Assembly: GCF_000151105.2 (NCBI RefSeq)
Contig: NC_014804.1
Location: forward strand, 744,001-808,000
Length of the DNA stretch: 64,000 bases
Source of the DNA: Thermococcus barophilus MP
Lineage (GTDB): Archaea > Methanobacteriota_B > Thermococci > Thermococcales > Thermococcaceae
Direction: 5' to 3'
The notes beneath the pieces are model-generated. The model did not search any database and was not told where the DNA came from. It worked only from the letters and a program-made list of their open reading frames with translations. Of this stretch, positions 14,569 to 16,524 are shown piece after piece; position 1 is the stretch's first letter; each line of letters opens with the position of its first letter. A program made the position numbers and the translations under genes.

Positions 14569-14859
14569 ATGAATATTAGAGAGTTTCAGCAAATGATAAG
14601 GGACATATACTTTCACAGAGATTCACAGAGAGGATTAGAGCGGACTTTCCTATGGTTTGTTGAAGAAGTGGGAGAGCTTTCTGAGGCTTTAAGGAAAGGA
14701 AAGAAAGAAGATATAGAAGAAGAGTTTGCTGATGTTTTTGCTTGGCTTGTGAGTTTAGCCAACTTAGCTGGTGTTGATCTTGAGAAAGCCGCCCTCAAGA
14801 AATACCCAAATAAGTGTCCTTACTGCGGGAAAAATCCATGTGAATGTAAGAAGGAGTGA
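14569..14859 (+). CDS. MazG-like nucleotide pyrophosphohydrolase
   Basis: This 96-residue all-alpha NTP pyrophosphohydrolase has the MazG metal-binding pattern EEVGELSEAL (residues ~28-37) and EEFADVFAWLVSLAN (~47-61). Such enzymes remove pyrophosphate from non-canonical or surplus NTPs. The C-terminus ends with CPYCGKNPCEC, a possible small zinc site not present in all family members. The ATG at 14569 follows GAGAGGTGAT. A mobile element is inserted a few bases after its stop. Confidence 0.82.
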   Translation: MNIREFQQMIRDIYFHRDSQRGLERTFLWFVEEVGELSEALRKGKKEDIEEEFADVFAWLVSLANLAGVDLEKAALKKYPNKCPYCGKNPCECKKE

Positions 14860-14976
14860 CTTTTTACAAGCCTCGCCCTTTAGAGCGGGGTTCAGTGTTC
14901 GAGAATTTGGCTCTTGAGTGGGAAAGCAAAAGAAAGATTTAAATACTTGTATGTATTAATACTTAATGGTGGGAGA

Positions 14977-15132
14977 GTGGGAGTCATAACTGTTTCCGTT
15001 GATGATGGGGTTGAGGAGAGGTTCAGAAAGCTCGTGGCAAAGAAGTATGGACGGATTAGGGGGGCATTGGGAGTTGCAGTAACTGAAGCAATGAAGCTCT
15101 GGATTGAAAAAGTTGAGCAGGAAGAAAAATGA
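14977..15132 (+). CDS. Small ribbon-helix-helix-like protein upstream of tnpB
   Basis: A GTG at 14977, preceded by GGTGGGAG, opens 51 codons. The sequence begins with a beta-strand (VITVSVDDGVEERFRKLV), followed by a helix-turn-helix-sized segment (GALGVAVTEAMKLWIEKVE). This is the layout of MetJ/Arc-type RHH DNA-binding proteins. Its stop overlaps the tnpB ATG by 4 nt, so they are translationally coupled. A TATA-like TTTAAATA at about 14939-14946 precedes it. A role as repressor of the element is inference. A longer frame upstream lacks a good start. Confidence 0.6.
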   Translation: MGVITVSVDDGVEERFRKLVAKKYGRIRGALGVAVTEAMKLWIEKVEQEEK

Positions 15133-16433
15133 AGCGTTCGGTAACGGTTAAACTTCAGCCCTCAAAAGCTCAAGAGAAGATCCTCTTCGAGTTAGCTCAA
15201 GCTACAGCCATAATCTGGAACAAAATCAATTACCAGAGACTAAAACAGTTCAAAGAATTCGGTAAGATAGACTTCTCAACGACAGAAAAAGAAGCATACC
15301 ACAAGTTCAAGAACTGGATTGGCGGCTCGACAGTTCAGCAATTAGCTCGAAAAAACGCCGAAGCTTGGAGGAGCTTCTTCTCGCTCAACAGGAAGAAAAA
15401 GAAAGGAGAACTGCCCGAATGGTTCAAGCCAAGACCGCCCAAATTCGTTAGAGAAGAAAACGGCAGAAAACTCTTCATAATTCCTTTGAGAAATGACCAG
15501 TATCGGATTAATGGTAACGTTCTCGAATTGAGAAGACTCGGAAAATTTGGTAGGCTGAGAATTCAGTTCAAGGGGAGAATACACTTGAGGGGAAAACAGG
15601 GAAGACTTGAAATAATCTATGACGATGTGAAGCGGAAGTTCTACGCTCACATCAGCTACACGGTAGAAGAGAAATTAACTAAGAAGGGGTGGGTCAAGGT
15701 TCCAAGACAACCTCCGGGAAGTTTAATTGCAGGAATTGACTTGGGCGTGAACAATTTAATGGCTGTCTATGTTGAAAATTGTGAATCCCTCTTGGTCAAT
15801 GGAAGGCCACTAAAATCCATAGCCTTCTATTGGCAGAAAAAGATTGCCGAGTACCAGTCTAAAATCAACAAATCAGGCTGTAAAAAGAGCAGAAAACTCA
15901 GGAGAATGCATGAGAAGGCTAAACTTCAGGCAAAACACTACATTAACACTGCCGTAAGGCAAACCGTCGAAAAACTCTACCACTTGGGCGTTTCGAGAAT
16001 TGTCGTGGGTTATCCAAGAGAAATCGCAAGGAACTCTGATAAGGGCAGAAAGCAGAATTTCATTCTCTCTCATGTTTGGCGTTTCAATTACGTTATCAAA
16101 CGGCTTAAGGAAGTTGCTGAGGAGTATGGTGTTACTGTTATAATCACGGATGAGGCTTTCACTTCTCAAACCTGCCCTCTCTGTGGCCAGTGCCACTCTA
16201 ATGCTCGTTTCGTTAGAGGTTTGTTTAAGTGTCACAGGGAGGGCGTTGTAATGAATGCTGATTTAGTTGGAGCCTTCAACATTTTGAAGAAGGTTGTTAG
16301 AACGATAACCCTGAGCCTTGAGGGTTTGAAAGCCTTCAAGGTGAGGGGTAATGGGCTCAAGGCCGAGCCCGAGGGGCTGATTTTTGGCTTTAATGAAGCC
16401 CCTCAAACCTCCCCGCCAATGGCGAGGGGCTAA
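15129..16433 (+). CDS. tnpB: TnpB-family RNA-guided nuclease (OrfB, IS200/IS605)
   Basis: This 434-residue protein has a helical N-terminal region (MKRSVTVKLQPSKAQEKIL). The RuvC-I motif GIDLGVNNLMAVYV is near residue 200. A central region reads VVGYPREIARNSDKG near 295, and a zinc-finger region reads TSQTCPLCG...FKCHREG near 350-375. The RuvC-III Asp is in NADLVGAFNIL near 385. The usual ExL of RuvC-II is replaced by a GYP motif, and the second zinc pair is C-H rather than C-C. TnpB proteins of this type cut DNA guided by an RNA made from the element's right end. It is intact, with no frameshift. Confidence 0.88.
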   Translation: MKRSVTVKLQPSKAQEKILFELAQATAIIWNKINYQRLKQFKEFGKIDFSTTEKEAYHKFKNWIGGSTVQQLARKNAEAWRSFFSLNRKKKKGELPEWFKPRPPKFVREENGRKLFIIPLRNDQYRINGNVLELRRLGKFGRLRIQFKGRIHLRGKQGRLEIIYDDVKRKFYAHISYTVEEKLTKKGWVKVPRQPPGSLIAGIDLGVNNLMAVYVENCESLLVNGRPLKSIAFYWQKKIAEYQSKINKSGCKKSRKLRRMHEKAKLQAKHYINTAVRQTVEKLYHLGVSRIVVGYPREIARNSDKGRKQNFILSHVWRFNYVIKRLKEVAEEYGVTVIITDEAFTSQTCPLCGQCHSNARFVRGLFKCHREGVVMNADLVGAFNILKKVVRTITLSLEGLKAFKVRGNGLKAEPEGLIFGFNEAPQTSPPMARG

Positions 16434-16524
16434 GCTAAACCCTCAGTCAAAGCAGGGAGGAGGTCAGATAAGCTAACAAAATTATTAAATATTATTTTAT
16501 CTCACTCATCATTTGGGAAAGACT
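16434..16524. promoter_or_regulatory. IS right end, possible guide-RNA end, and promoter of the pilin-like gene
   Basis: Downstream of the tnpB stop lies a C/G-rich stretch (16438-16465, AAACCCTCAG...GGGAGGAGG). It resembles the reverse complement of the left-end sequence and would form the 3' part of an omega-type guide RNA. Beyond about 16470 the sequence becomes A+T rich (TTATTAAATATTATTTTATC), which would serve as the promoter of the following pilin-like gene. Confidence 0.4.

What the first reader, a model, noticed from the sequence alone, without database searches (positions are those of the whole stretch)
15129..16433. TnpB with GYP in place of the RuvC-II glutamate motif
The expected ExL segment reads VVGYPREIA, while acidic residues occur further on in TDEAFTSQTC before the zinc finger, and the zinc finger's second pair is Cys-His. 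Catalytic-site rearrangements are known in the TnpB superfamily. This intact thermophilic example may use a relocated glutamate.
Basis: partly seen in the sequence, partly recalled or inferred. Interest (0 to 1): 0.52.

Follow-up and report, generated by a model that had tools for sequence, protein, structure and literature searches.

The report
Archaeal TnpB with relocated catalytic glutamate
This is an intact heat-loving archaeal TnpB, an RNA-guided DNA cutter carried by a small mobile element, whose active-site glutamate sits at a second position already described for Fanzors and many other TnpBs, so the oddity is real but belongs to a known type.

Summary
ORF 15129-16433 is an intact 434-aa TnpB with Gly294 (VVGYP) where canonical TnpBs carry the RuvC-II glutamate. 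Glu342 (TDEAFTSQTC), six residues before the first zinc-finger Cys, most likely takes over: exactly the 'Ealt' position of Yoon et al. 2023 (PMC10711439) and, by inference, that of the Mg-coordinating Glu541 of Fanzor SpuFz1. In 57 Thermococcaceae TnpBs the exchange is reciprocal without exception: 43 Gly294+Glu342, 14 Glu294+Pro342. All 72 viral-contig relatives with ORFs of 300 aa or more are Gly/Glu (sampling leans that way). The Glu after GYP is Glu in 9 of 37 GYP-type rows.

The Cys-His zinc pair is wrong in detail: His369 varies, the fourth Cys is lost in 37 of 37 GYP-type rows, and His356 is invariant there, so a C-C-H-C site is likely (not shown).

The gene lies in a 1,607-bp element (14861-16467) without TnpA, with a guide-RNA-like right end; three relatives have the empty site. 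In passing: a coupled ribbon-helix-helix-like gene (14977-15132) sits in the TnpA slot, and Rfam's HgcC RNA covers right ends of this TnpB group in 19 of 30 fetched loci.

The parts
14861..16467 (+). whole mobile element, 1,607 bp, inserted after TGAC (14857-14860, which overlaps the stop of a MazG-like gene)
   Evidence: left and right ends line up across copies with unrelated flanks; three relatives (L102, L103, L106) have both flanks and no element; exact left boundary read by eye
14857..14860 (+). TGAC next to the left end, putative transposon-associated motif
   Evidence: read; of 42 loci a pattern that itself required T[GT]A[CT] parsed 22: TGAC 18, TTAC 3, TGAT 1; the window's own junction was not parsed by it; inference
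14868..14890 (+). left-end hairpin AAGCCTCGCCCTTTAGAGCGGGG
   Evidence: conserved in many copies
14938..14962 (+). TATA-like box TTTAAATA (14938-14945) and palindrome GTATTAATAC (14953-14962), putative promoter and operator
   Evidence: similar TATA-like stretches in most of 20 RHH-bearing loci, but the exact palindrome in only 4 of 20 (L071-L073, L075; L071 is the window); function inferred
14977..15132 (+). 51-aa ribbon-helix-helix-like gene (GTG start), overlapping tnpB by 4 bases (ATGA)
   Evidence: third codon positions change most in 13 of 13 comparisons; helices 10-24 and 30-50 predicted; no Pfam or NCBIfam match
15129..16433 (+). tnpB, Ealt type, DLG (DPhiG) in RuvC-I
16008..16016 (+). 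codons of Gly294-Tyr295-Pro296, canonical glutamate position lost
16152..16154 (+). codon of Glu342, the relocated glutamate
16173..16232 (+). zinc ribbon Cys349-Cys352-His356-Cys368; the fourth Cys site holds Glu371
   Evidence: metal binding inferred
16348..16467 (+). right end, putative omega-RNA scaffold ending GGAGGAGGTCAG
   Evidence: consensus fold of 30 right ends
16468..16487 (+). flank that would be the guide
   Evidence: follows directly on the conserved right end; unrelated between copies; inference

Best explanation
It is an RNA-guided DNA endonuclease TnpB of the Ealt, DPhiG type. The RuvC triad is Asp204, Glu342 and Asp378: Glu342, at the end of a RuvC strand just before the zinc ribbon, replaces the canonical RuvC-II Glu (here Gly294) in binding the catalytic metal ions. 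The protein is made from a TnpA-less, IS200/IS605-like element, takes the right-end transcript as its omega-RNA and uses the 3' flank as guide next to a TGAC-like motif, so it would cut the empty donor site and help the element persist. Shown: sequence, conservation, reciprocity, element ends, empty sites in relatives. Inferred: catalysis, metal binding, guide use, biological role.
For: Reciprocal pairs, 43 and 14 of 57; 72 of 72 viral relatives Asp/Gly/Glu/Asp; Asp204, Gly294, Glu342, Asp378 invariant in 60 aligned sequences; spacing identical to published Ealt; ISDra2 TnpB and AsCas12f have Pro at the Ealt column (alignments); SpuFz1 Glu541 with Asp383 and Asp606 coordinates two Mg2+ (PMC10432273, PMC11423790, passages). 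Model pLDDT 86.2, pTM 0.79, Asp204 at the end of strand 199-205, Glu342 after strand 336-341, Asp378 at the start of helix 377-389; matches ISDra2 TnpB 8h1j (Z 22.5) and mimivirus Fanzor2 9b0l (Z 19.7) over residues 1-391/392. dN/dS 0.057-0.093 in five comparisons. Right-end RNA fold conserved.
Against: No biochemistry on this protein or a close relative was found. The loop 300-310 after GYP has pLDDT under 50. One of 43 Ealt rows (L029) has Asn for Asp378. The genome has no Y1 transposase match. The second right-end hairpin of this copy is shortened, and its right end gave no Rfam match.
Confidence: 0.88

Rival explanations
1. Nuclease-dead, exapted TnpB (TldR-like RNA-guided repressor): loss of the canonical Glu marks loss of cutting.
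For: The canonical Glu is absent; a coupled DNA-binding-like gene suggests regulation.
Against: Asp204, Glu342 and Asp378 are kept and invariant in 60 sequences. Copies with conserved ends and unrelated flanks look mobile rather than exapted.
Confidence: 0.06
2. The glutamate that follows GYP (Glu298) swings back into the canonical site.
For: It lies four residues from the canonical column, just before a poorly modelled loop.
Against: Residue 298 is Gly 24, Glu 9 and Lys, Ser, Asn, Asp one each in 37 GYP-type rows.
Confidence: 0.02
3. Asp341, next to Glu342, is the metal ligand.
For: It is acidic and adjacent.
Against: Residue 341 is Asp 18, Asn 15, Gly 3, Ser 1 of 37.
Confidence: 0.01
4. The active site is of the Ealt kind, but this copy or its guide RNA no longer works (a decaying IS). 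This overlaps with the best explanation, so the odds do not add up to one.
For: No Y1 transposase match in the genome, two broken sister copies, a shortened right-end hairpin.
Against: Full open frame, dN/dS 0.057-0.093, core motifs kept.
Confidence: 0.15

Closest known systems
Ealt, DPhiG TnpB clade (Yoon et al. 2023, PMC10711439; passages seen)
   Same: Glu six residues before the first zinc-finger Cys; DLG in RuvC-I; no Glu at the canonical position
   Different: Second CxxC pair lost (C-x-x-E/T) with an invariant His356; it would fail that paper's search expression, which asks for the second CxxC; the word archaea does not occur in the held text
Fanzor1/2, e.g. SpuFz1 (PMC10432273, PMC11423790; passages seen) and mimivirus Fanzor2 (9b0l)
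   Same: Relocated Glu (the equivalence with Glu541 is inferred), overall fold
   Different: RuvC-I is DLG, not DPG; prokaryotic element
SisTnpB1 of Sulfolobus islandicus (PMC10640517, part 1 of 2 read)
   Same: Archaeal, thermophilic, IS200/IS605 type, active at 75 C
   Different: Catalytic Asp187, Glu271, Asp335; the spacing fits the canonical Glu position (inference)
ISDra2 TnpB (8h1j, 8exa)
   Same: Fold and domain order; right-end guide RNA principle (recalled)
   Different: Canonical Glu (recalled); Pro at the Ealt column

Membership tests
TnpB (guided_TnpB, NF040570) | Score over the curated cut-off | tested here: met
   166.6 bits, cut-off 100
TnpB (guided_TnpB, NF040570) | RNA-guided DNA cleavage | not testable with these tools
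   needs purified RNP
Ealt TnpB (PMC10711439) | Glu six residues before the first zinc-finger Cys, none at the canonical column | tested here: met
   E342-AFTSQT-C349, Gly294
Ealt TnpB (PMC10711439) | DPhiG in RuvC-I (the non-Fanzor Ealt clade) | tested here: met
   D204-L-G
Ealt TnpB (PMC10711439) | CxxC ... CxxC of that paper's search expression (a search filter, not its definition of Ealt) | tested here: not met
   second pair C368-x-x-E371; fourth Cys absent in 37 of 37 GYP-type rows
Fanzor / pro-Fanzor | DPG together with Ealt | tested here: not met
   DLG
IS200/IS605 element | Y1 TnpA in the element | tested here: not met
   no such ORF between the ends and no Y1 match in the genome; relatives chosen for it, L223-L230, carry it directly upstream of the same TnpB group
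IS200/IS605 element | Hairpin ends, insertion 3' of a short fixed motif without target duplication | tested here: inconclusive
   ends and motif as; the absence of a duplication rests on diverged empty sites
TldR-like nuclease-dead TnpB | Loss of the RuvC triad (definition recalled; paper not held) | tested here: not met
   Asp204, Glu342, Asp378 kept
Ribbon-helix-helix regulators (ORF 14977-15132) | Strand-helix-helix fold / Pfam RHH model | tested here: inconclusive
   two helices at the expected places, pLDDT 90; Foldseek lists three ParD chains among 10 matches, best E 3.9; no Pfam match

The most novel reading that the evidence does not exclude
Thermococcales run a self-regulated Ealt TnpB system: a ribbon-helix-helix repressor encoded in the TnpA slot controls its own and tnpB expression, the nuclease has a C-C-H-C zinc ribbon, and its guide RNAs are the long-orphan HgcC RNAs, also made by tnpB-less short elements that could program the nuclease in trans.
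Probability: 0.25. Interest if true: 0.6.

Novelty: new member of a known kind. Interest (0 to 1): 0.32.

Why it matters
The active-site relocation is known, so the main point is a clean confirmation: within one archaeal family the canonical and the alternative Glu exclude each other without exception in the 57 sequences examined, with Pro at the alternative place when the canonical Glu is present. It points to hyperthermophilic Ealt TnpBs, for which no biochemistry turned up in the searches made (listings). If the side finding holds, an archaeal RNA family called of unresolved function in 2017 (HgcC; PMC5732400, passage) becomes, at least in part, a TnpB guide RNA.

Tried and rejected
Considered and rejected: Glu298 or Asp341 as the catalytic acid; a dead TnpB; membership in Fanzors (DLG, not DPG). 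The first alignment of relatives took minus-strand loci in the wrong orientation and is void; one search replaces it. In the Rfam search of four own-genome loci HgcC was reported at the right end of L043 only (38.6 bits, under the gathering score of 50), not at the right ends of L001 (the window), L002 or L042; a second HgcC match in L002 (27.5 bits) lies upstream of its tnpB, not at the right end.

Limits of the counts: the viral set was confirmed against the window protein and leans to Ealt; the tool kept 80 of 213 confirmed loci, and 8 of the 80 were dropped for ORFs under 300 aa; it holds near-copies. The tree mixes loci fetched because they carry the RHH-like gene or TnpA, so 22 / 8 / 31 are not frequencies. 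Right ends: a pattern found 33 of 42 loci, of which 3 short ones were dropped; the first stem lies inside tnpB's coding sequence, so its conservation may partly reflect the protein; column shuffling is a weak control.

Full report
What was checked. The ORF at 15129-16433 is intact (434 aa) and is a TnpB by Pfam and NCBIfam. Its RuvC residues are Asp204 in GIDLG, Gly294 in VVGYP where canonical TnpBs have Glu, Glu342 in TDEAFTSQTC, and Asp378 in NADL. The 22 named loci fetched with it are all Thermococcus, Thermococcaceae, Thermococcales or Thermococci. In 82 of 94 genomes of the family the protein has a match at E up to 0.001 (the weak ones are other TnpBs, as the low scores suggest).

Is it a relocation? 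In 57 Thermococcaceae TnpBs (L001 = the window, L002, L007-L031, L109-L138) the residues at 294/342 are Gly/Glu in 43 and Glu/Pro in 14; no other pair occurs. Six of the 43 form a second Ealt group (IGEL ... DEAYTS) without the zinc-finger cysteines; the other 37 are GYP-type (one reads GYL). A scan of viral contigs confirmed 213 relatives, of which 80 were kept; 72 have an ORF of at least 300 aa and all 72 read Asp/Gly/Glu/Asp at 204/294/342/378. This set leans towards the query by construction. In a 60-sequence alignment the same four residues are invariant. The Glu after GYP (298) is Glu in 9 of 37 GYP-type rows, and Asp341 is Asp in 18 of 37, so neither is a good candidate. ISDra2 TnpB and AsCas12f show Pro at the Ealt column.

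What is known. Yoon et al. 2023 (PMC10711439; [quoted passage not shown] In the Fanzor SpuFz1, Glu541 with Asp383 and Asp606 coordinates two magnesium ions (PMC10432273, PMC11423790; passages); that Glu541 is the Ealt residue is my inference from its place between the fifth strand and the TNB domain, as the second paper words it. The archaeal SisTnpB1 is active at 75 C with Asp187, Glu271 and Asp335 (PMC10640517, part 1 of 2); its spacing fits the canonical type. From memory only: Altae-Tran et al. 2023 (PNAS) report rearranged catalytic sites in several TnpB branches; that paper is not held.

Structure. AlphaFold2 on the 60-row alignment gives pLDDT 86.2 and pTM 0.79. Asp204 ends strand 199-205, Gly294 lies inside strand 288-295, Glu342 follows strand 336-341 and Asp378 lies at the start of helix 377-389. 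The loop 300-310 and the tail from 404 are under pLDDT 50. The model aligns with AsCas12f (Z about 24), ISDra2 TnpB 8h1j (Z 22.5, rmsd 4.0, 343 aligned) and mimivirus Fanzor2 9b0l (Z 19.7, rmsd 3.5, 352 aligned) over nearly residues 1-392.

Zinc ribbon. Residue 369 is Arg 14, Pro 12, His 10, Gln 1 of 37; the fourth Cys site (371) is Glu 27 or Thr 10; His356 is His in 37 of 37. The canonical-Glu rows have Cys at 371 in 13 of 14, the other being a gap. A C-C-H-C site is the simplest reading; metal binding is not shown.

The element. Left ends (hairpin after a pyrimidine run) and right ends (mostly GGAGGAGGTCAG) line up across copies with unrelated flanks, which puts the window element at 14861-16467, after TGAC at the stop of a MazG-like gene. 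Of 42 loci a pattern that itself asked for T[GT]A[CT] parsed 22 left junctions (18 TGAC, 3 TTAC, 1 TGAT); the window's own junction has a short pyrimidine run and was read by eye. For the empty site, eight loci with the MazG-like gene were compared (L101 is the window): the left end was found in the window only; three relatives (L102, L103, L106) also match the DNA downstream of the element, 57-102 bases after the MazG-like match; the other four (L104, L105, L107, L108) match upstream only. Thirty right ends (33 found by pattern, three short ones dropped) share a fold of -23.7 kcal/mol against a mean of -0.1 for 50 column-shuffled alignments, and two pairs (columns 53/89, 54/88) change on both sides; that stem lies in coding sequence. 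TnpB is under purifying selection (dN/dS 0.057-0.093 in five comparisons). No Y1 transposase match exists in the genome, while 25 of 94 family genomes have one; in eight loci fetched for that reason (L223-L230) it lies directly upstream of this TnpB group. Mobilisation in trans is an inference.

The coupled small gene. A 51-aa ORF (14977-15132, GTG) overlaps tnpB by ATGA. Of 30 loci fetched with it from 94 genomes, 22 (L071-L091, L100; the window included; some of these TnpBs are cut or broken) have a TnpB of this group directly downstream, and 8 (L092-L099, 51-54% identical) have none. Third codon positions change most in 13 of 13 comparisons; dN is 0.009-0.165, dS larger wherever defined and undefined in 5. 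The model shows two helices as in ribbon-helix-helix proteins; Foldseek gives only weak ParD matches and Pfam none, so the fold is likely but not proven. On a tree of 61 GYP-type TnpBs the accessory gene is scattered: RHH 22, TnpA 8, none 31, 14 changes for RHH, at least 5 forced by well-supported branches (sampling not random). Searches on this pairing found nothing: (TnpB with ribbon-helix-helix: 3 papers, passages seen, none on it; listings only), in a library that lacks most subscription journals.

HgcC. The Rfam family HgcC matched the right end of a tnpB-less short element of the same genome (L043, 38.6 bits, gathering score 50) together with sot0042 (34.7 bits, gathering 88), a family set up from archaeal IS1341 transcripts (PMC8303175, passage). 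The right ends of the window, L002 and L042 gave no HgcC match at E up to 0.1. In 94 family genomes 75 have an HgcC match at E up to 0.001 and 21 one over the gathering score; of 14 named control genomes it rings in 3, over the score in 1. Of 30 fetched loci, by my reading, 19 lie in sense over the 3' end of a GYP-type tnpB, 5 lie divergently beside a TnpB whose best match among five queries is a canonical-Glu one, and 6 have no such TnpB or only a fragment. Of the five fetched loci over 90 bits, four are divergent and one has no TnpB match; so the identity with omega-RNA is plausible for the sense cases and open for the best-scoring HgcC RNAs. In T. [quoted passage not shown] furiosus one is antisense (PMC4247193, passage). 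A 2017 paper calls the function unresolved (PMC5732400, passage).

Verdict. The added value lies in the strict reciprocity, the His-for-Cys change in the zinc ribbon, and the two side findings.

Noticed in passing
14977-15132; L071-L091, L100: 51-aa ribbon-helix-helix-like gene coupled to tnpB by a 4-base overlap, in the slot that TnpA takes in some relatives.
   Followed up: partly
L239-L268; L043:1411-1588: Rfam HgcC (RF00062) lies in sense over the 3' ends of GYP-type tnpB genes in 19 of 30 fetched loci: part of HgcC looks like TnpB guide RNA.
   Followed up: partly
L239, L240, L241, L242, L260: HgcC RNAs, four of them over 90 bits, lie divergently beside a TnpB closest to the canonical-Glu queries, an unusual arrangement for a guide RNA.
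   Followed up: no
L042 (G000:C1 about 582370-582729), L043/L235 (1329645-1330030), also G000:C1:516370-516760: Elements of roughly 360-390 bp without tnpB, with ends like those of the window element and a long conserved middle; a fourth, partial match at 294521-294838.
   Followed up: partly
L029: A relative has Asn in place of the RuvC-III Asp (NANLVG), as in the active Fanzor GtFz1 (N658; PMC11423790, passage).
   Followed up: no
L117, L120, L121, L124, L132, L133: A second Thermococcaceae Ealt group (IGEL ... DEAYTS) without the zinc-finger cysteines.
   Followed up: no
L003/L005 and L004/L006: Two broken sister copies of the element in the same genome: one split over two frames with a stop, one with an internal deletion.
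   Followed up: no
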